64,000 bases of DNA, taken from NCBI RefSeq assembly GCF_022430525.1, contig NZ_CP092519.1:248001-312000 (forward strand), written 5' to 3'. Under the pieces are notes generated by a model that did no database searches, had not been told where the DNA came from, and saw only the letters and a program-made list of their open reading frames with translations. How positions within the stretch are numbered: the first letter of the stretch is position 1; each line of letters opens with the position of its first letter. Below, one piece after another: positions 7,989 through 60,924 of the stretch. This stretch comes from Cetobacterium somerae. GTDB taxonomy: Bacteria > Fusobacteriota > Fusobacteriia > Fusobacteriales > Fusobacteriaceae. Made by a program: the position numbers and the translations under genes.

Positions 7989-10900
7989 ATGAAAGCGAAA
8001 GAGAAAATGGTATTGTTAGGAATCTTTCTATTATTTTCTAGCAAAAGTTTGGTGAGTTATTCAATTCCAGTTACAAGTGAGAATAATAATGATTTAACTA
8101 TTACAAGTGGAACAGCAATAGAGGCTAATAAAAATCATAATAGAGTAAATAATGCAACTATAACAGTTAGTGGAGACAAGACTGTTGGGATGAAAGCAAA
8201 CAACTACTCATCTGGAGATCCATCAATAGTTGAAAATAGAGGAACTATAAATGTAACTGCAGGAGCGGGAACAATAGGAATGCAGGCAGCAGGGAGCGGG
8301 ACCCAAGCTATAAATGCAGGTACAATAACTCATAATGGTAATAATTCAACATCAAATGCAATGTTAGCTCAAAATGGTGGATACTTAGAAAATAATGGAA
8401 CTATTGAAATTTCAGGAACTAATGCATCTGGAATGGCAGCAGATAAAGATGGATCATCATTAAAAAATACAGGAACAATAGTAGTAGATAAAAATGCAAA
8501 AGGAATAAAGTTAACAAATGGAGCAAGAGGGCTAAACTCTGGGAAAATAGATGTAAAAAATGGAACAGGAATGTCAATTGAGACAGGATCGATCGGAGAA
8601 AATAAAGGTAAAATAAATATATCAGGAAACGGAACAGGTATATTAGTAACAGGAGGAAGCGAAGGTTTAAATAGCGGAATAATAACCTTAAATAATGCTA
8701 ATTCGACAGGAATGATAATAGGAAATACAAATTCTCAAGGAAAAGGAGAAAATACGGGAGATATTTATGTTTCAGGAGATAAATCAACAGGGATGTCAAT
8801 TTTAAATGGAAGTTCTGGAATAAATAGTGGAACTATAAATGTTACCGCAGGAGAATTTACTTCAGGAATGAAAGTTGATGGAGTAAATAGTACAGGGACG
8901 AATAATGGAGCTATAATTCATACAGGAAATGGAAAGACATCAAATGCCATGTTAGCTCAGAATGGTGGATACTTAGAAAATAATGGAACTATTGAAATTT
9001 CAGGAACTAATGCATCAGGAATGACAGCAGATAAAAATGAGTCATCATTAAAAAATACAGGAACAATATTAGTAGATGGAAATGCAAAAGGAATAAAAAT
9101 AGTTGGAGCAACAGGGTTAAATACAGGAAAAATAGATGTAAAAAATGGAACAGGAATGTCAATTGAAACAGGGGCGAAGGGAGAAAATACAGGAGAAATA
9201 AATGTATTAGGAAAAGGAACGGGGATATCGATAGCTGGTGGAAGCGAAGGTTTAAATAGTGGAATAATAAAGTTAAGCAGTGCTAATTCAACAGGAGTAT
9301 CTGTTAGTAATAGTAAAGGTAAAAATACAGGAGATATCCATGTAACAGGAAATAGTTCAACAGGAATGTCGGTAACAGGAGGCGGAACAGGAGTAAATAA
9401 TGGAAATATTTATGTAACTGCTAATCAATATACATCGGGAATGAAAGTTGATGGGGCAGGTAGTGTTGGAATAAACAACGGAACTATAATTCACACAGGA
9501 GATGGTCAAACATCGAATGCAATGCTAGCTCAAAATGGTGGATATTTAGAAAATAATGGAACTGTTGAAGTCTCAGGAGTAAACGCATCTGGAATGGCAG
9601 CAGATGGAAATAGTTCATCATTAAAAAATACAGGAACAATAGTGGTAGATAAGAATGCAAAAGGAATAAAATTAACAAATGGAGCAATAGGAATAAGTTC
9701 TGGGAAAATAGATGTAAAAAATGGAACAGGAGTATCGATCGAATCTTCATCTAAAGGAGAAAATAATGGAGATATTTATGTAACAGGAGATAAATCAGTA
9801 GGAATATCAATTACGGCTGGAAGTGAAGGGGTAAATACAGGAAACATTTATGTAACTGGACAAGAGTTTACTTCAGGAATGCAAGTAGTAGGAAGTGGTT
9901 CTAAAGGAATAAATAATGGAGCTATAATTCATACAGGAAATGGAAAAACATCGAATGCGATGTTAGCCCAAACGGGTGGATATTTAGAAAATAATGGAGC
10001 CATTGAAGTTTCAGAAGTAAATGCATCTGGAATGGCAGCAGATGGGAACAATTCATCATTAAAAAATACAGGAACAATAATAGTAGATAAAAAAGCAAGG
10101 GGAATAAAATTAAGTGGTGGAGCTAATGGAATAAGTAGTGGAAAGATAGATGTAAAAGAAGGAACAGGTATCTCAATTGAAACAGGTGCAAAAGGTGAGA
10201 ATCAAGGAGATATTTATGTAACAGGAAATTCTTCTTATGGAATTGCAATTAGTGGAAAAGGTGAAGGAGTAAACAATGGAAATATCTATATTTCAGGAAA
10301 ACAGTATACATCAGGAATGAAGGTAGATGGAGTAGGAAGTATAGGAATAAATAATGGAGTAATAATTCATGAAGGAGATGGTCAAACATCAAATGCAATG
10401 TTGGCTCAAACGGGAGGATACATTGAAAATAACAGATTCATTCAAGTATCCGCAGTAAATGCATCTGGAATGGCAGCAGATAAAGAAGGGTCATCACTAA
10501 AAAATCAAGGAGATATTTTAGTTTTAAATAAAGCAAAAGGAATAAAATTAAGCAATGGAGCTAGTGGAATAAGCAGCGGAAAGATAGTTGTAGAAGAGGG
10601 AACAGGAGTTTCAGTTGAAACAGGTGCAAAAGGTGAAAATCAAGGAGATATTTCAATAACAGGAAACTCTTCGTCAGGAATTTCGATTTCAGGAGCTGGA
10701 GAAGGAATAAATACAGGAAATATTTATGTTTCAGGAAAACAATATACAGCTGGAATAAAGGCGGATGGATTAGGAAGCATAGGAATAAATAATGGAACAA
10801 TAATCCATGAGGGAGATGGCCAAACATCAAATGCAGTTTTAGCTCAAGGAGGAGCAACTGTTGAAAATAATGGTTTAATACAAACATCAGGAATAAATAC

Positions 10901-29125: not shown

Positions 29126-32100
29126 TTAAAATCTATAATTTAATCCAGTACCTATTTTCCAAGAATCATCTTTTTCAAAAATATATTTATAATCAATATA
29201 AAAACTTAAAGAATCATTACTAATAGCAGCAATATCAACTTTCGCTCCTAATTCTTGCGAAAAATTATTTTTTCTATCAATATTTAGTTTTGAGTTTTCA
29301 TTTGAAATATTTTTAAAACTTACATCTAAATCATTATTAGAGCTATTTATTTCTTGACCTAATCCAGCTAAAAGTTTAAATGTAACTGTATAGTTATTAC
29401 TTGGATAGAAAACTTTACCAATAGAGATATTTGTATTAATTTTGCTAAAAAAATTATTTAACTTATCAATCTCAAGTTCATATTCTCCACTAGATTCCTT
29501 TATTTTATGTTGAAATACTCCCATTGCATAAGCACTAATTTCAGGTTCTATAAAAAAGTTAGTAAAGTTATATTGTTTAGATAATTTTCCAGAAGTTCCT
29601 AAATAGAAATTTTTTAAATCTCCTTTGTAGTTTTCATTAATAGTACTATAAGTTGGAGTATTGTCTTTAAAGTCTAAAAAGCTTAAATTTAAATCTCTTT
29701 TAACATTACCTTTTGAGTAACCTAAATAGAAAGTTCCAATACCTTTTTTATTATTGTTATTATAGTTTATAAAAGCTGTTCCTTGTAAAAAGTTATCCTC
29801 TCTTTTTCCAGCATTAGAGTAATAATCACTATCAAGACGAGTATAACTAAAAATAACACCAAAATCAGAAACCTCATTTAAATAGAACTGTTTTCCTAAG
29901 TAAAAACCATTTAAATTTTCATCATATCCCTCAACATGATCGAATCCCTTTTGTCTAAATTTTTCAAAGGTATAACCTACAATATAGCTATCATCTTTAC
30001 CTTTTACTAATTTTTTATCTAAATTTTCAACTATGTTTTCAGTGGTATAAGCAATAACATTTTTAGTTTGAAACATAATATTAGGATATATACTTCTTCC
30101 TAAAAATTTATCTAAATAAAAATTATATTCATAACTATTTCGAGCACTTCTAAGAACATTAAAAAATTGATCTTTAGAAGAGTTTTCAGAATCAAAATAA
30201 ATTGTTTCTAAGAAATTACCAGTTTTATTATCTGTTATCTCTGAGAAATTTTTTCTTCTAATTAAGGTAGTCTCAGAATCAGTATTAATTTCATAAAGAT
30301 ATGAGTAAGAATCTATTTTTTCAGCAGTAAAAGTTAATTGAGTAGGTGTAAATGTAGAATCATTTTTAGTGTAGAGAGTTGAAGCATAACTTAAACCAAT
30401 GGTAGCTTCTTTTAATGGTGTACTTGTAGTTCCACCTTGCTCCATAACAAGAGAACCATTAGGTCCATTTTTAACTCCATTTGGAGCTATAATATTACCA
30501 TAGTTAAAAACATTACCATTTGTAGTTAAAAGTCCAGAATCACCGAGATTGATAGTTCCGTTATTAACAGCAGAACCTCCATTTAAATAAAAAGCATAAC
30601 TATTAGTTGAGCCATTATTAATTGTAATAGTACCATCAGATGCATTTGAAATACTAACACTTCCATTAGATCCCATAGCATTAGCATTAGGACCATCTAC
30701 AATAATAGTTCCACTATTACTAGCACTTCCATTTGAGTTAACAAACATTCCACCAGATGGGTTTAAATTAACTCCATCAATACTTGTGACTTTAATAGTT
30801 CCAAGGTTTGTTAGTGTTCCACCATTATAAACATACATACCATAATCAGTATCTGTAATATCTATAACACCTTTTTCATAGTTAATAACATTAGTTCCAC
30901 CAGAAACGGTTATAGCAGAGTTACCAAAAGCTAAGGAAATAGTTCCCATATTTTCTACATTTCCAGGACCAAAAGCTAAAATTCCATATGTCCCACCTTG
31001 ATAATCTTGAGCAGTTCCTTTGATAGTTCCATAATTTCGAAAATATGTATCAGAAGTACTGTTATAAAGGCTAACTGCCGTACTTCCCAGAGAAAAATTG
31101 ATAGTACCATTATTAGTTCCAGTAGTAGCTCCTTGTAAAAGAATACCATTTTGATAGTTTCCAACATTAATAGTACCATTATTAGTAAGAGAACCAGATT
31201 TTTCAATTCCCATAGCATAGTTACTATCTCCACCGTTAATGTTAATAATTCCATCAAGTTTATTAATGATAGTTCCACCTCCAGTTCCATACATTAAAAT
31301 ATGAGTGGAAAAGTTGTCAGTAATATTAGAAGTTATAGTACCATTATTAATAAGGCTTCCGGTTCCAGATAGATACATTGTATAATCAGCATTACTAGAA
31401 CTTAAAGTTCCAGTATTTATACCAGAACCACTTCCAATAACACCAATTTTAGCAATCTCATTACTATCAGAATTAATAATTCCATCTATGTCATTAGTTA
31501 CATTACCTCCATCATGAGAAAGCAGAGCAAACTTTGTATTTTTTATATTAATATTACCATTGTTATATGCAGACCCGCTTCCATCTACAAGAATAGCTGA
31601 AACTCCATTAGATATTTCGATAGCTCCAAAGTTTTCCATGTAGCCTTGTCCATTTATAATAACGCTGTAACTAGCATCACCAGAGATTTTAGCAGAGCCA
31701 TCATTAAAAAAGTATGATCCAGATGAGCTATTGTTTAGTAAAATTCCAACTCCACCACCAGATATATTAATAGTATCATTATTAAAAATAGCTCCGTCAC
31801 CTTCTAAATACATACCGAAAGAGTTAGACAGAGATTTATTTAAAGTAGAACCTACAACATTTATAGTTCCATTATTATAGATTTCACCATAATTTGAAGT
31901 ATACATTCCAATAGAATTATCATGAACATTTATAATAGATTTATTATTTCCAATATTATTTACGCCATTATTAGAAATACTATTCCCTTCAATAACGATT
32001 CCAATACTATTTGAAGAAACATTTATAGTTCCAGAGTTTTGAACTTCACCACCATTAACAGAAAAAATTCCAGTACTATTGTTTGAAGTATCTATAGTTC

Positions 32101-32791
32101 CATTATTAGTGAAAGAACCATCACCATCAATATAAGCACCTATCTGAGAATTAGTTACACTAATCTTCCCTAGATTACTACCTGTTCCATCGCCTACAAT
32201 AGCCATTCCAAAATTATTACCAGTTCCTTGAACAAGAATTTCTCCTGAAAGTCCATTGATAATTTCACCACCATTCTTAGATAACATTCCTAAAAGATCT
32301 TGAGAAGTATCTCCATTTTCAACTTTAATTATATTGGCATTTTCAATAGAGAAACCATTTTCTACAGATCCCATACCAGTGAATAGATTATTAGTAGGAG
32401 TAACAACTAAATTTTCATTTGTTGTATACGAATGAGTATTAAGAATCCAGTTGTTATTAAAAAATATTTTTGAATAGTCAGGTGGACCACTAGGTGCTGT
32501 AGGAGTAATAGGTTTTGTAGCTGGAATATTAGGAATACTAGGTGCAGGAGTAATAGACGGAGTAGTAATATTAGGTTTTGATGGAGTAGTAACTGGTGGA
32601 AGTAAAGTAGGGTTTTTCTCAGAAGATTCAATTGGTAGATTAATATTAGAGTTTTTTATTTTAAACTCTTTTTCATTAGATTTAAAATATTTAAAATTTG
32701 TAAAAAAGATAAGTCCTGATTCAGAATTAGATAAAGATGAACGGTTAGTTACTATAAACAAAGAAAATAATAAAAAAAGTTTTTTTTTCAT
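29126..32791 (-). CDS. Autotransporter with proline-rich neck and beta-helix passenger
   Basis: This 1221-residue protein has a signal peptide (MKKKLFLLFSLFIVTNRSSLS), then a Pro/Thr/Ser-rich segment at about 57-105 (KPNITTPSITPAP and similar). A passenger of many NNGTI/NSGTI turns (about 120-860) follows. One C-terminal barrel of about 300 residues ends GTGLNYRF. Unlike the autotransporter at 7989 it has only one barrel, and its repeats are diverged rather than near-identical. Probably a surface adhesin or carbohydrate-binding structure; no enzyme domain is seen. Location beside the GAG genes suggests, but does not show, a shared role. Confidence 0.88.
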   Translation of the reverse strand: MKKKLFLLFSLFIVTNRSSLSNSESGLIFFTNFKYFKSNEKEFKIKNSNINLPIESSEKNPTLLPPVTTPSKPNITTPSITPAPSIPNIPATKPITPTAPSGPPDYSKIFFNNNWILNTHSYTTNENLVVTPTNNLFTGMGSVENGFSIENANIIKVENGDTSQDLLGMLSKNGGEIINGLSGEILVQGTGNNFGMAIVGDGTGSNLGKISVTNSQIGAYIDGDGSFTNNGTIDTSNNSTGIFSVNGGEVQNSGTINVSSNSIGIVIEGNSISNNGVNNIGNNKSIINVHDNSIGMYTSNYGEIYNNGTINVVGSTLNKSLSNSFGMYLEGDGAIFNNDTINISGGGVGILLNNSSSGSYFFNDGSAKISGDASYSVIINGQGYMENFGAIEISNGVSAILVDGSGSAYNNGNINIKNTKFALLSHDGGNVTNDIDGIINSDSNEIAKIGVIGSGSGINTGTLSSSNADYTMYLSGTGSLINNGTITSNITDNFSTHILMYGTGGGTIINKLDGIININGGDSNYAMGIEKSGSLTNNGTINVGNYQNGILLQGATTGTNNGTINFSLGSTAVSLYNSTSDTYFRNYGTIKGTAQDYQGGTYGILAFGPGNVENMGTISLAFGNSAITVSGGTNVINYEKGVIDITDTDYGMYVYNGGTLTNLGTIKVTSIDGVNLNPSGGMFVNSNGSASNSGTIIVDGPNANAMGSNGSVSISNASDGTITINNGSTNSYAFYLNGGSAVNNGTINLGDSGLLTTNGNVFNYGNIIAPNGVKNGPNGSLVMEQGGTTSTPLKEATIGLSYASTLYTKNDSTFTPTQLTFTAEKIDSYSYLYEINTDSETTLIRRKNFSEITDNKTGNFLETIYFDSENSSKDQFFNVLRSARNSYEYNFYLDKFLGRSIYPNIMFQTKNVIAYTTENIVENLDKKLVKGKDDSYIVGYTFEKFRQKGFDHVEGYDENLNGFYLGKQFYLNEVSDFGVIFSYTRLDSDYYSNAGKREDNFLQGTAFINYNNNNKKGIGTFYLGYSKGNVKRDLNLSFLDFKDNTPTYSTINENYKGDLKNFYLGTSGKLSKQYNFTNFFIEPEISAYAMGVFQHKIKESSGEYELEIDKLNNFFSKINTNISIGKVFYPSNNYTVTFKLLAGLGQEINSSNNDLDVSFKNISNENSKLNIDRKNNFSQELGAKVDIAAISNDSLSFYIDYKYIFEKDDSWKIGTGLNYRF

Positions 32792-32869: not shown

Positions 32870-32901
32870 ATAAAAAAAAGAACACTTTAAAGTGTTCTTT
32901 T
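32870..32901 (-). terminator. Terminator of the secreted-protein operon
   Basis: A perfect palindrome AAAGAACACTTTAAAGTGTTCTTT is followed, on the minus strand, by a run of T. It lies just after the stop of the 104-residue gene. Confidence 0.85.
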
Positions 32902-32912
32902 AAAAAGCATTT

Positions 32913-33227
32913 TTAATATCCATAATATGGTTGAGGAACAGGTCTATAGTAGTCATTATTGTGATTGTTATGGTAATTATTATTATTTTGATTTGCAATA
33001 ATTCCACCTACTACCACAGCACCTACCACAGCAGCACCAATAGCTTGTCTTCTTCTTTCTCTTTTAACTGCTCTTCTAATATCTTTTCTAACTTCTTTTC
33101 TAATTTCATGACGAACATGAGCTTTTACAATTTCATGCTTAATAACAGGTGGAATTGGTCTATGATATCTTGCAAAAGAAGTAGTTGTTAAAATAATAAG
33201 CATAAATAATGCTAAAAATTTCTTCAT
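32913..33227 (-). CDS. Small basic secreted protein, Arg/His-rich
   Basis: This 104-residue protein has a signal peptide (MKKFLALFMLIILTTTSFA), then a strongly basic stretch (about 30-62, EIRKEVRKDIRRAVKRERRR). A small-residue hydrophobic segment AIGAAVVGAVVVGGIIA (glycine-zipper-like) and an Asn/His/Tyr-rich tail ending PQPYYGY follow. It is the last gene of a three-gene operon. The zipper could insert in or associate with membranes, and the basic stretch could bind polyanions such as GAG or nucleic acid. Both are inference; no named family recognised. Confidence 0.75.
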   Translation of the reverse strand: MKKFLALFMLIILTTTSFARYHRPIPPVIKHEIVKAHVRHEIRKEVRKDIRRAVKRERRRQAIGAAVVGAVVVGGIIANQNNNNYHNNHNNDYYRPVPQPYYGY

Positions 33228-33229
33228 AA

Positions 33230-33637
33230 TTACTTTCCTCCTTTTTCTAATATTTTTCCAAAGTTTTGAACTTCATCTTTATTGAAAACAATATAGTCTT
33301 CAGTTCCGGCAAAATCTAGAATAAGGACACCCTGTTTTTTATCATATTGTAGATGATAAAATTGTAAAGCGCTTTCTTCAGGATTGTTAGCATTAGCTAT
33401 AATTCCTGGGATTTGATATCTAGGATTTCCATCTTTAAATGTATTTATTAAAACAGATTTTGGCAATCCAAAAGTAACAATAGCTCCAGTTTTTGTTTGC
33501 AAAGCAAAATAAGCATTACTATTTTGGATAAACATACCTATTTTATCAGTTTCTGTAGAGATATCATTTTTAACAATATCAGCAGCAAAAAGGTTTAAAG
33601 AACCTAAAATTCCTAAAATAAGAAAGAATTTTTTCAT
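33230..33637 (-). CDS. Small secreted protein, paralogue of the next gene
   Basis: This 135-residue protein has a signal peptide (MKKFFLILGILGSLNLFAA) and a mature part of about 115 residues. It shares a pattern with the product of 33640-34032: YFALQTKTGAIVTFGL against YVALASNSGEAYVFGL, and a similar DYIVFNKDE against DFTIYFTKDE near the end. No Cys and no known motif. Only 2 bp separate it from each neighbour, so the three are one transcript. Probably periplasmic; function unknown. Confidence 0.75.
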   Translation of the reverse strand: MKKFFLILGILGSLNLFAADIVKNDISTETDKIGMFIQNSNAYFALQTKTGAIVTFGLPKSVLINTFKDGNPRYQIPGIIANANNPEESALQFYHLQYDKKQGVLILDFAGTEDYIVFNKDEVQNFGKILEKGGK

Positions 33638-33639
33638 GA

Positions 33640-34032
33640 TTATTTTACCTCCTTAACTGCATTAAAAATCTTATTTGTTTCATCTTTTGTAAAATATATT
33701 GTGAAATCTTCGTAAGTAGGTTTTACATTTAATTTATTATCTGAAAAAGACACATTATATAACTCAGTCTCCAATTTATTTTCATCTAAACTATCATAAA
33801 AACCTATAACTTCTTGTTGTTTAATTCCCTTTTGTACATCTAAAAGAACATCATTTGCTAATCCAAAAACATAAGCCTCACCAGAGTTGCTAGCTAAAGC
33901 CACATATGTTGCACTTTCAACTTTTTCAATTTTTAACTCTGGAAAATTCATACTTCCTTGCTCATTTCTTATTTCAGCACTAAATGTAATAGCTGATAAT
34001 AAAAGAGAGATAGGAATTAAAAGTTTTTTCAT
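33640..34032 (-). CDS. Small secreted protein, first of three-gene operon
   Basis: This 130-residue protein has a signal peptide (MKKLLIPISLLLSAITFSA). The mature part is acidic and beta-rich and is paralogous to the following gene's product. It is preceded by AAGGAG and by a 32-bp element (34051-34082) shared with the promoter of the PRD regulator. It was therefore probably made under that regulator's control. No known family; function unknown. Confidence 0.75.
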   Translation of the reverse strand: MKKLLIPISLLLSAITFSAEIRNEQGSMNFPELKIEKVESATYVALASNSGEAYVFGLANDVLLDVQKGIKQQEVIGFYDSLDENKLETELYNVSFSDNKLNVKPTYEDFTIYFTKDETNKIFNAVKEVK

Positions 34033-34050
34033 TTTAAGCTCCTTTGAAAT

Positions 34051-34082
34051 ATTTTAGTAATAAAACTATATATATACTAACA
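34051..34082 (-). promoter_or_regulatory. 32-bp promoter element of the secreted-protein operon
   Basis: The stretch contains AAACTATATATATAC and aligns without gaps to 35611-35642, with about 27 of 32 bases identical. It lies 19 bp before the ATG, so it covers the likely -10 region. Same factor, possibly the PRD regulator, could act at both sites. Confidence 0.5.
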
Positions 34083-34146
34083 TATATTTTAAAGGTTGAG
34101 GATTTGAAAAAGCATTGACAAAATTTGGTATGAAAATTCAATTACT

Positions 34147-35568
34147 TTATTTTAAAATTAAACTTAATTGCGAAAGCTCAAAATTATCATCTAAGAATAG
34201 TTCACGATTTACTTTTACAACTGGGATATTTAATTTAAAATTTTGCAAATCATCAATAGTTATAATATAGTTAACTTCAAAGACATCTTCTAATAAAGAG
34301 TTAATTTCATAACTTTCAATAATCTCTACAACTTCAACATATGAAAAGTTTTTTAAATATTTAGAGAGAATTTTTCCATACATATGATCAAAAGTATCAT
34401 CAACAATAACAACTCTTTTGTATTTTTCATTTTCTAATTTAGATTGCATAGAATGTTTTTTTAAAATTATTCCAAGATGAATAATATCTTCTGAATAAAA
34501 TCTTGGAAAAATACTTTTAACAATCTCTTTAATTTTTGTATATTTTTCTTTCTGTTCTCGATTTAATTGATAAATTTCTTTGTTTTCGTAGAAATTATAT
34601 TCTTGTTTTAAGTTACCAACTCTTAAAACATTTGATATTCTCATAATTGTTTGAGGACTTGTAGAAAGATCTATATTAAAATATTCTTTAATTTTGTTAA
34701 TAAAAATTTTGGTATTTTCGCTTGGAGTTTCATATAACTTTATATCTAAATAAAATAGAGTTTTAATGATAGAGTCTAATTCATAAGGTTTTAGATAATC
34801 TAAACCTCTAATTTTTAAAAATTTAAGAGTTTTCTCATAATACTTATGTTGAATAAGATTTTCATTAGAGTAAGTTTCATCAAGAATAGACTCTTTTTTA
34901 TCTCTTATAGAATGAATAAGAAGAATAGCCACTATTTTATAAAAATCTTCAGGAACAAGAGTAACCGAAATACTATTTAGAAGTCTTAAAACAAAAATTT
35001 TATTAAACTCTAAAACATCCTCTTGGAAATATTTTCCGATTAAATCTGCAAATAATTTGTGATTGATATTTTTATTAATTAAAAATTTTGTTAAATGCAT
35101 AGCAAAAAGTTCTCTAATCATAGGTTCATTTCCTTCTAAAAATATACCTCGACCAGAGATGCTCTCGATTTTTAAACCTTTATTTTCCAAGTAATCTTTT
35201 ATTTCTTTAAGGTCATAATTTAAAGTTCTTCTAGTAGTTTGTATTTTATCTGTATTATCATTTAAATTTATTGTATTTTCAAAAAAAAGTTGTAATAAAA
35301 GATACTCTTTTCTTTCTGTAACAGAAAGTGGTGCGAATTGTAAAATATCTTTAATTTTATTTATAGTACAAGGTTTTAAAAAGAAAAGATCTTTAACTTT
35401 TTGAATTCCATGTATTTTATAAGTTGCTAAAAAATCATTAATTATATTGATATTATTATCAATAGAACGTTTTTTTATATGTAATATTTTCTCCAAATCA
35501 GAATAACTAAATCTATTTAAGGAAAAGAATAAACTAAGAATATAAAGGGATTTTTTATTTAAAAACAT
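34147..35568 (-). CDS. PRD-containing BglG/Mga-type transcriptional regulator
   Basis: This protein of about 473 residues has N-terminal helix-turn-helix segments (LEKILHIKKRSIDNNINII and the TTRRTLNYDLKEIKDYL region). Two PRD-like helical domains follow, with candidate His in IVAILLIHSIRD and IIHLGIILKKHSM. A degenerate EIIB-like C-terminus (RVVIVDDTFDHMYGKILSKYL) lacks the phospho-Cys. Such proteins are activators controlled by PTS phosphorylation. An ATG at 35592 is in frame, but AAAGGAGAAT at 35571-35580 fits the ATG at 35568. It lies divergent from nothing and upstream of the secreted-protein operon. Confidence 0.75.
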   Translation of the reverse strand: MFLNKKSLYILSLFFSLNRFSYSDLEKILHIKKRSIDNNINIINDFLATYKIHGIQKVKDLFFLKPCTINKIKDILQFAPLSVTERKEYLLLQLFFENTINLNDNTDKIQTTRRTLNYDLKEIKDYLENKGLKIESISGRGIFLEGNEPMIRELFAMHLTKFLINKNINHKLFADLIGKYFQEDVLEFNKIFVLRLLNSISVTLVPEDFYKIVAILLIHSIRDKKESILDETYSNENLIQHKYYEKTLKFLKIRGLDYLKPYELDSIIKTLFYLDIKLYETPSENTKIFINKIKEYFNIDLSTSPQTIMRISNVLRVGNLKQEYNFYENKEIYQLNREQKEKYTKIKEIVKSIFPRFYSEDIIHLGIILKKHSMQSKLENEKYKRVVIVDDTFDHMYGKILSKYLKNFSYVEVVEIIESYEINSLLEDVFEVNYIITIDDLQNFKLNIPVVKVNRELFLDDNFELSQLSLILK

Positions 35569-35610
35569 TAATTCTCCTTTCTTGAAAATCATAATAATGT
35601 AATATAGTAT

Positions 35611-35642
35611 ATTTTACAATAAAAACTATATATATACAAACA
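35611..35642 (-). promoter_or_regulatory. 32-bp promoter element of the PRD regulator gene
   Basis: Second copy of the element at 34051-34082, with the identical core AAACTATATATATAC. It lies 43 bp before the regulator's ATG and just after the terminator of the preceding gene, which suggests autoregulation. Confidence 0.5.
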
Positions 35643-35675
35643 AAAAAGGCTGAGTTTTTAAAACTCAGCCTTTTA
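35643..35675 (-). terminator. Terminator of the 117-residue secreted-protein gene
   Basis: The arms GGCTGAGTTTT and AAAACTCAGCC form a strong stem with a T run on the minus strand. Confidence 0.85.
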
Positions 35676-35683
35676 TTAATAAA

Positions 35684-36037
35684 TTATCTTCTTATTTTGT
35701 CTAACTCTCTTTCAGTTACGAACATTGAGTTGTTTTTAGATTTAATCCATAGTCCGTCACCTTTTCTATCTAAAGTAACTACAACTTTTCTATCTACATC
35801 TAAAATGATTCCATTTTTTTCAAAATCAGCAACTGACATAACTTTTCCAATTCTTGTCATAGCTTTAAAAATATCTACTTTTTTAACTTTGAAAGTTACG
35901 TTAGGTATTTTAGATTCAAAGCTAATTTGGTTTCCTTCCTCATATGATCTTATTTTTGTCATAGTTCCGTTAACAATACCTGCAAAGGCACTCATGCTTA
36001 ATGTAGCAGCTAATATAATCATTTTTATTTTTCTCAC
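35684..36037 (-). CDS. Small secreted protein of unknown function
   Basis: This 117-residue protein starts at a GTG behind TAGGAGGA and has a signal peptide (MRKIKMIILAATLSMSAFA). The mature part is basic and rich in short beta stretches (PNVTFKVKKVDIFKAMTRIGK, DRKVVVTLDRKGDGLWIK). The ending VTERELDKI recalls the KDE endings of the other two small secreted proteins, a weak likeness. It is a separate transcript with its own terminator. Not recognised. Confidence 0.7.
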   Translation of the reverse strand: MRKIKMIILAATLSMSAFAGIVNGTMTKIRSYEEGNQISFESKIPNVTFKVKKVDIFKAMTRIGKVMSVADFEKNGIILDVDRKVVVTLDRKGDGLWIKSKNNSMFVTERELDKIRR

Positions 36038-36164
36038 GTTAATTAATCCTCCTAAAATATATCTATGTAGAGACGATTATATATGAAAGTGAAAAAAATA
36101 TCTATTTGAAATTTACTACTAAAAAAATGTATGAAATTTCAAATATGTGAAATTTTATACTAAC

Positions 36165-60046: not shown

Positions 60047-60793
60047 TTAGAAGAAATACTTTGCACCTATACTTGCAATGAATAAAGGATCATCATTAAC
60101 AATAGGAGAATCAGTAATTTCGCTAGAGAATTTCTCTATTCCTAAAATTCCTATGAACGATACTTTTTCATTATATCTGTATTCAGCTGATAAGTTAGCT
60201 CCAAAAGAATAAGCAGTATCTGCTTTATATTCTCTAGTTAATTTATCAGTAGATGATCTATTTACTTCATCTGATGTTACTCCGAAATAGTAGTTTGCAT
60301 AATCTCCAGAGAATCCTTTAACGTGAATTCCAGGAACTAAAGTAAATTTGTCATTGATATTATAAGGTCTAAATGCGCTTAATTTAGCTTCAGAACCATG
60401 CTCACCAAATTGAACAGAAGCACCTGTTCTAATTCCAGCTATTCTTGTATTTAAGTCAGCTCTTAATCCAACCATAGCTTGGAAATCTCTATCATCAATA
60501 TTAGTGTATCCATCTCCCATATCCTTAGCTTTAATAGGGAAACCAGCCATAGGATCAACGAATACAGATAAAGATAGATCTTCGCCTTTAAAGAAGAAAT
60601 ATCCAGGAGTGATTCCTTTAATATAGAAGTTACCATAATTAACATCTAAAAGCGGTACAGGATAAGCTTTGTCTTCAGCTCCTTTGTAGATACTGTTTGA
60701 AACTCCTACTCCAGCTCCAATTCCATATCTATTTTCTGCTAAAGCCATAGTAGATAAAGCTAAGGCTAAAGCTCCCAAAATAATTTTTTTCAT
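60047..60793 (-). CDS. MipA/OmpV-family outer-membrane protein
   Basis: This 248-residue beta-barrel protein has a signal peptide (MKKIILGALALALSTMALA). It opens with the family-typical pattern RYGIGAGVGVSNSIYKGAEDKAYPVPLLDVNYGNFYIKG, shown here only as overall similarity, and ends with the outer-membrane sorting residue F (IGAKYFF). MipA/OmpV members are small outer-membrane channels or scaffold proteins. It is a single-gene transcript with an inverted repeat over its start region. Confidence 0.88.
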   Translation of the reverse strand: MKKIILGALALALSTMALAENRYGIGAGVGVSNSIYKGAEDKAYPVPLLDVNYGNFYIKGITPGYFFFKGEDLSLSVFVDPMAGFPIKAKDMGDGYTNIDDRDFQAMVGLRADLNTRIAGIRTGASVQFGEHGSEAKLSAFRPYNINDKFTLVPGIHVKGFSGDYANYYFGVTSDEVNRSSTDKLTREYKADTAYSFGANLSAEYRYNEKVSFIGILGIEKFSSEITDSPIVNDDPLFIASIGAKYFF

Positions 60794-60836: not shown

Positions 60837-60924
60837 TCATAGAATACATAGTTTTATAACTAAGTACAATATAGAAATTTGTTGCTAAAAACAGTGTACT
60901 TTTTTTCAAATGCTAGAGATTAAA

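What the first reader, a model, noticed from the sequence alone, without database searches (positions are those of the whole stretch)
32913..36037. PRD regulator with four small secreted proteins of unknown function
Three co-transcribed genes (104, 135 and 130 residues) and one separate gene (117 residues) encode signal-peptide proteins. Two are clear paralogues, one is Arg-rich with a glycine-zipper-like segment. The regulator between them and the operon share a 32-bp promoter element (34051-34082 and 35611-35642, about 27/32 identical). PTS-controlled output of small secreted proteins next to two autotransporters is not a system I know.
Basis: partly seen in the sequence, partly recalled or inferred. 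Interest (0 to 1): 0.6.

Follow-up and report, generated by a model that had tools for sequence, protein, structure and literature searches.

The report
Envelope-protein regulon beside an Mga-like regulator
A fish-gut bacterium of the Cetobacterium group carries a gene regulator next to four small exported proteins, and a shared DNA switch suggests that these proteins are turned on together with an outer-membrane protein and a small lipoprotein as one cell-envelope response, which is a lead worth testing rather than a proven system.

Summary
The ORFs are real. REG (34147-35568) has HTH-PRD-PRD-EIIB architecture without EIIA (Mga/AtxA-like), but its two PRD-2 histidines and EIIB cysteine are lost in 7/7 orthologues, so PTS control is unsupported. 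The 27/32 REG/C element is present here but in none of 6 relatives. The autotransporter and sulfatase neighbours are not conserved.

Comparative promoter work found something else. Gene D (35684-36037) and operon C-B-A (34032-32913) share a 37-38 bp dyad (TTGAAATTTnnTAC...AAATTTCAA), in most copies 24 bp before the -10. It precedes CBA in 8/8 genomes, also where CBA lies away from REG; 9/10 D copies; and a MipA/OmpV outer-membrane protein gene (60047-60793; 5/6 genomes). A model of these sites then found it, out of training, before a small lipoprotein gene (3 genomes; a fourth with the refined model). Strong matches occur in 8 of 61 family genomes, 7 carrying REG (the eighth is 67% complete). 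D copies in REG-less genomes lack it.

Best reading: REG or a co-inherited factor activates an envelope regulon, perhaps against cationic-peptide or envelope stress (MipA precedent; RND-efflux neighbours in two relatives). Regulon: strong. REG as its factor: likely. Inducer: speculative.

The parts
34147..35568 (-). REG: regulator, HTH_11/Mga + PRD-like + EIIB-like, 473 aa from the likely start (ORF extends to 35592)
   Evidence: Pfam Mga E 8e-7; hhalign to PRD-EIIB regulators prob 100, E 9.7e-39 over 455 columns
35684..36037 (-). D: 117-aa exported protein, predicted small beta-rich fold
   Evidence: 12 of 61 relatives; AF2 mean pLDDT 82
33640..34032 (-). C: 130-aa exported protein, first gene of the operon
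   Evidence: 8 of 61 relatives; AF2 mean pLDDT 78
33230..33637 (-). B: 135-aa exported protein, paralogue of C
32913..33227 (-). A: 104-aa exported Arg-rich protein with Gly-rich hydrophobic segment
   Evidence: 8 of 61 relatives
36106..36142 (-). dyad operator of D, 37 bp, 21/21 conserved positions
36076..36081 (-). -10 hexamer TATAAT of D, 24 bp after the dyad
34104..34141 (-). dyad operator of C-B-A, 38 bp, 17/21
34074..34079 (-). -10 hexamer TAGTAT of C-B-A (TATTAT in several relatives), 24 bp after the dyad
60047..60793 (-). MipA/OmpV-family outer-membrane protein, third target
   Evidence: Pfam MipA E 5.6e-40
60872..60909 (-). dyad operator of the MipA gene, 17/21; no -10 at the 24-bp spacing in this species
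35644..35674 (-). terminator-like stem-loop after D
32876..32901 (-). terminator-like stem-loop after A

Best explanation
REG is a stand-alone regulator of Mga/AtxA (PCVR) architecture that probably works without PTS phosphorylation. As a dimer or multimer it would bind a 37-38 bp dyad at about -37 to -74, next to a poor -35 box, and recruit RNA polymerase, switching on D, C-B-A, a MipA/OmpV outer-membrane protein and a small lipoprotein. The products are exported: D, B and C are predicted small beta-rich periplasmic proteins, A is a basic glycine-zipper-like protein. Together they would be an envelope-protection module, most likely against cationic peptides or other outer-membrane stress. Shown here: the shared operator, its spacing, its targets, its distribution, and the loss of PTS sites. 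Inferred: that REG is the binding protein, that it activates, where the products sit, and what the inducer is.
For: Operator: before CBA 8/8, D 9/10 copies in REG genomes, MipA-1 5/6. Of 271 upstream regions of the loci, 12 score >=17/21, 11 of them C, D or MipA; 24 of 3000 random AT-rich regions reach 17, none 19. A model built on D, C and MipA sites found a new target, a small lipoprotein, in 3 genomes at E 4-6e-6 and, refined, in a fourth at 1.7e-4, with the same 24-bp spacing. Strong hits (E <= 1e-6) in 8 of 61 family genomes; the other 53 have nothing below 4e-4. 7 of the 8 have REG. D homologues in REG-less genomes score 13-15, background. The hexamers at the -35 position are mostly poor. 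In REG-less G005 and G003 another REG-like regulator lies divergently beside a MipA gene and in G005 two REG-like ORFs lie beside D. D-REG follow a TolC-MFP-RND-MerR operon in G008 and G010 (these names by reading). MipA/MipB sense polymyxins and promote MexXY synthesis in P. aeruginosa (PMC10936184, abstract and passages).
Against: No binding or expression data. REG and the operator are confined to one group of related species, so any other group-specific factor would show the same pattern (Fisher p 0.010 ignores phylogeny). G011 has the operator but no REG was found (67% complete). REG's own promoter lacks the operator (7/7), as do D of G002 and MipA-1 of G009. The window's MipA site has no -10 at the 24-bp spacing. 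The RND operon itself had no operator hit listed. Known PCVRs are reported to bind with little sequence specificity (PMC10773906 passages), which argues against a strict dyad. The envelope-stress role rests on homology of one target and on neighbours.
Confidence: 0.5

Rival explanations
1. The dyad regulon is real, but another transcription factor binds it and REG is only a neighbour.
For: REG's own promoter lacks the dyad; group-limited co-occurrence cannot separate REG from other group-specific factors; the genome has several other REG-like regulators; G011 has operators without a detected REG.
Against: D sits directly before REG in 7/7 genomes and CBA directly after it in 5/7; REG-like regulators recur beside MipA or D in REG-less G005 and G003. 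The REG paralogue was found in only 3 of 12 genus genomes, while the dyad is in 8.
Confidence: 0.3
2. One reading: a PTS-responsive PRD regulator couples sugar supply to secretion of colonisation proteins, linked to the neighbouring autotransporters and glycosaminoglycan-type genes.
For: REG is a full-length homologue of PRD-EIIB regulators; sulfatase and sugar genes flank it in this genome.
Against: Two PRD-2 histidines invariant in 6/6 PRD regulators are V/L and I/V in 7/7 REG orthologues, EIIB Cys is Asp; a PRD-1-like His of the window protein is Asn or Ser in the other six. G002, G008 and G010 have the locus without sulfatase or autotransporter neighbours.
Confidence: 0.1
3. Ordinary conserved envelope genes with a constitutive promoter motif; no dedicated regulation.
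For: AT-rich promoters of this genus easily match loose motifs; many weak hits exist.
Against: Mostly fixed 24-bp spacing, dyad symmetry, unrelated target families and near absence elsewhere.
Confidence: 0.1

Closest known systems
PCVRs: Mga, AtxA, MgaSpn, MafR (Firmicutes)
   Same: Two N-terminal HTH regions, PRD-like middle, EIIB-like end, no EIIA; PRD histidines not conserved (also said of MafR and AcpA). [quoted passage not shown]
   Different: Diderm Fusobacteriota; associated with a conserved dyad at fixed spacing, whereas MgaSpn and MafR are described as reading AT-rich or curved DNA; predicted targets are envelope proteins, not known virulence genes.
MtlR/LicR-type PRD activators
   Same: Same domain order over 455 columns.
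   Different: No EIIA; PRD-2 His and EIIB Cys lost.
ParRS-MipBA-MexXY of Pseudomonas aeruginosa
   Same: Co-regulates a MipA outer-membrane barrel with exported partner proteins; efflux genes nearby in two relatives here. MipB carries small eight-stranded barrels modelled to dock on MipA.
   Different: Two-component system there, REG-type regulator here; no MipB-like protein among the predicted targets, small single-domain proteins instead; no operator found at the efflux operon.
Sigma-E envelope regulon of Fusobacterium nucleatum
   Same: Envelope regulon in the same phylum (PMC11005410 passages).
   Different: Needs a sigma factor; the targets here have TATAAT-like -10 boxes and a dyad activator-like site.

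Membership tests
[quoted passage not shown] Mga HTH | tested here: met
   Pfam Mga 30.0 bits (cut-off 21.1), E 8e-7; HTH_11 22.3 bits is below its cut-off of 25; weak HTH_Mga at residues 8-55
PCVR (Mga/AtxA-type) regulator | Two PRDs followed by an EIIB-like domain, no EIIA | tested here: met
   Profile alignment over 455 columns to six PRD-EIIB regulators, ends before EIIA; but no Pfam PRD or PTS_IIB hit in the REG proteins scanned
PCVR (Mga/AtxA-type) regulator | Controls virulence genes | not testable with these tools
   no expression data
PTS-controlled PRD regulator (MtlR/LicR type) | Phosphorylatable PRD-2 histidines | tested here: not met
   0 of 7 REG orthologues at both columns, 6 of 6 comparison regulators
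PTS-controlled PRD regulator (MtlR/LicR type) | EIIB cysteine and EIIA domain | tested here: not met
   Cys column Asp in 7/7 (Cys in 4/6 comparison regulators); the protein ends before EIIA
MipA/OmpV family (target gene) | MipA Pfam domain | tested here: met
   PF06629 138 bits, cut-off 24.2
Envelope-stress response | Induction by envelope damage | not testable with these tools
   needs transcriptomics
Common origin of D with B/C | Sequence homology between the two groups | tested here: inconclusive
   hhalign probability 6.5; same order of predicted elements (five strands, helix, four strands, helix) and overlapping top structural rows

The most novel reading that the evidence does not exclude
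A PCVR-type regulator that has lost PTS control has become, in a diderm anaerobe, a sequence-specific activator of an antimicrobial-peptide defence regulon: MipA barrel, lipoprotein, basic glycine-zipper protein A, and three small beta-barrel periplasmic proteins (D, B, C) that act as MipA partners or decoys.
Probability: 0.22. Interest if true: 0.65.

Novelty: new variant of a known kind. Interest (0 to 1): 0.45.

Why it matters
PCVRs are known from Gram-positive pathogens and some members are said to bind DNA largely by shape, so an exact dyad with fixed spacing and a bounded regulon would give this class a testable DNA code. It would also give Fusobacteriota an envelope regulon separate from sigma-E, assign context to exported protein families without Pfam or NCBIfam matches, and offer a route to what MipA proteins do.

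Tried and rejected

Solved-structure relatives by sequence: for REG the best was Mga at E 0.23; nothing convincing for D or B/C. Foldseek: no PDB match with E <= 0.001 for D or C. VIA-align top rows (SsgB Z 7.5 for D, SsgA-like Z 9.1 for C; OspE and LpqH barrels below) are in or near the range the tool calls common arrangements; no function is drawn from them. Viral contigs: no relative of B/C.

Weak operator hits rejected or left open: G000 C1:117179, G006 C1:1165635, G008 C1:38892, G010 C30:26906, G008 C16:17063 (inside genes, or not clearly before a gene on that strand). An OMP gene on C3 (L147, and L148 in G009) has a right half-site and the spacing, E 0.005: left open. No operator seen by eye at the REG paralogue locus L004. 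No inverted repeat shared by the two regulator-MipA intergenic regions of G005 and G003 was found.

Rows dropped: L021 left out of the PRD comparison because of a stop in the translated stretch. The G010 MipA row is a contig-edge artefact; the value is used. L185, a fragment, was not scored (23 of 24 MipA loci scored). D copies are under-represented in the 271-region null because that list used ORFs of 120 aa or more.

Literature: no paper on such a regulator or regulon in Fusobacteriota in the listings.
Full report
Setting. The window lies in a 2.97-Mb genome.

Observation. All four small ORFs and the regulator exist. C, B and A follow each other with 2-bp gaps and end in a terminator-like site; D is followed by its own terminator-like site, and REG then starts at 35568. 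No Pfam or NCBIfam family describes A, B, C or D. All five genes are under purifying selection.

Distribution. Of 61 genomes searched (own included), REG orthologues (72% or more) are in 7: G000, G002, G006, G007, G008, G009, G010. B/C are in 8 and A in the same 8 (these 7 plus G011). D is in 12, including five genomes without a REG orthologue; it also occurs in two Crenobacter (Betaproteobacteria) genomes. D is directly upstream of REG in 7/7, in tandem duplicate in G006, G007 and G009. CBA is directly downstream in 5/7; in G008 and G010 it lies on another contig, divergent from a 379-aa lipoprotein-like gene, as in G011. In G008 and G010, D-REG instead follow TolC-MFP-RND-MerR genes (named by reading). 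G002 has sigma factor/D/REG/CBA without the sugar island; in the window the sigma gene (58187) is 22 kb from D. The sulfatase and autotransporter neighbours are therefore incidental.

Regulator. Pfam sees only Mga and HTH-type domains in REG. Profile comparison with six PRD-EIIB regulators of the phylum aligns 455 columns at probability 100. Two histidines invariant in the six are V/L and I/V in 7/7 REG orthologues; the EIIB Cys (4 of 6) is Asp in 7/7. A His at a PRD-1-like position of the window protein is Asn or Ser in the other six. REG thus has PCVR architecture (PMC8560693 passages) without the PTS phosphorylation sites tested.

The real shared element. Aligning upstream regions of C (8 genomes), D (11 copies) and REG (7) showed that C and D, not C and REG, share a conserved block. 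It is a dyad, TTGAAATTTnnTAC...AAATTTCAA, 37-39 bp, followed in most of the 24 aligned sites by 24 bp and a TATAAT-like -10. Scored on 21 positions: C 17-18 in 8/8; D 18-21 in 9/10 copies in REG genomes (G002 lacks it); REG promoters 13-15 in 7/7; D in REG-less genomes 13-15 in 6/6 copies. Background: 271 upstream regions have a mode of 14; of 12 with 17 or more, 11 are C, D or MipA and one is the G002 sigma gene. Of 3000 random 220-bp AT-rich regions, 24 reach 17 or more, 2 reach 18, none 19.

Regulon. A strict pattern across 12 genus genomes found C and D sites plus sites before a MipA/OmpV gene. A MipA-1 orthologue (71% or more) is in 6 of 12 genus genomes, all with REG; 5 of 6 have the site (16-18/21; G009 does not), while MipA-2 paralogues score 13-15. 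A model from 21 C, D and MipA sites then found, outside its training set, a site before a small lipoprotein gene in G000, G007 and G009 (E 4-6e-6; genes); the refined model added G006 (E 1.7e-4). Across 61 family genomes the strong sites (E <= 1e-6) are confined to the 8 genomes with CBA; the other 53 have nothing below 4e-4. E-values of training sites are strong by construction, and the calibration is rough.

Who binds. Presence of REG and operator agree in 11 of 12 genus genomes (7 both, 4 neither; G011, 67% complete, has operator only; Fisher p 0.010 without correction for relatedness). In REG-less G005 and G003, another REG-like regulator is divergent from a MipA homologue (2 of 23 MipA loci scored), and in G005 D lies beside two REG-like ORFs and TolC-MacAB-like genes (the second ORF shows only a weak HTH). 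So regulators of this type and these envelope genes keep company repeatedly. This favours REG but does not prove it.

Products. AF2 models of D (pLDDT 82) and C (pLDDT 78) are beta-rich with the same element order. Sequence profiles of D and B/C do not match, so common origin is open. Top structural rows for both include SsgB, OspE and LpqH barrels at middling Z. For function the best clue is MipA: in P. aeruginosa MipA binds polymyxins, MipB carries small barrels modelled to dock on it, and both are needed for MexXY induction (PMC10936184 abstract and passages). In Vibrio mimicus ompV rises under sub-inhibitory antibiotics including polymyxin B (PMC13413815 abstract).

Assessment. Regulon (D, CBA, MipA-1, lipoprotein): about 0.9. 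REG as its activator: about 0.6-0.65. Envelope or cationic-peptide stress as the signal: about 0.35. Compared with PCVRs the surprise is a strict dyad, since MgaSpn and MafR are described as shape readers (PMC10773906 passages), and the diderm host.

Noticed in passing
L093 and L094, around position 10001: D homologues (52-57% identity) in Crenobacter caeni and C. intestini (Betaproteobacteria, 68% GC) near genes that look like hemin uptake (TonB receptor, HemP-like, ABC ATPase; names from reading, not tested): possible gene transfer between gut bacteria.
   Followed up: partly
L004 6747-8174: A REG paralogue (43% identity) lies between TolC/MFP-like genes and a Met-rich small exported protein, a two-component system and a ferredoxin-nitroreductase-like gene; the same regulator is found in G006 and G007.
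   Followed up: partly
L160 7167-13980; L162 4637-7459: The genome carries several short REG-like regulators, often in tandem pairs; one group of four lies next to a 1155-aa ORF that may be an autotransporter.
   Followed up: partly
L147 2315-2420; L148 3419-3524: An outer-membrane-protein-like gene (243 aa) has the right half of the dyad and the 24-bp spacing to TATAAT; possible further target.
   Followed up: partly
window 3222-58000: A large sulfatase, heparinase-like and beta-galactosidase-like region (names by reading) separates REG/D from the sigma-factor gene, which is next to D in G002.
   Followed up: partly
window 29126-32791: The 1221-aa autotransporter sits between A and the sulfatase in this genome; in G006, G007 and G009 the sulfatase follows A directly.
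   Followed up: partly
L171 and L174: In G005 and G003 a REG-like regulator and a MipA gene are divergently arranged with a well-conserved intergenic region of about 250 bp.
   Followed up: partly
L063, L064, L065: Where CBA lies away from REG, it is divergent from a 379-aa lipoprotein-like gene; a similar gene lies near a REG-like pair in L162.
   Followed up: no
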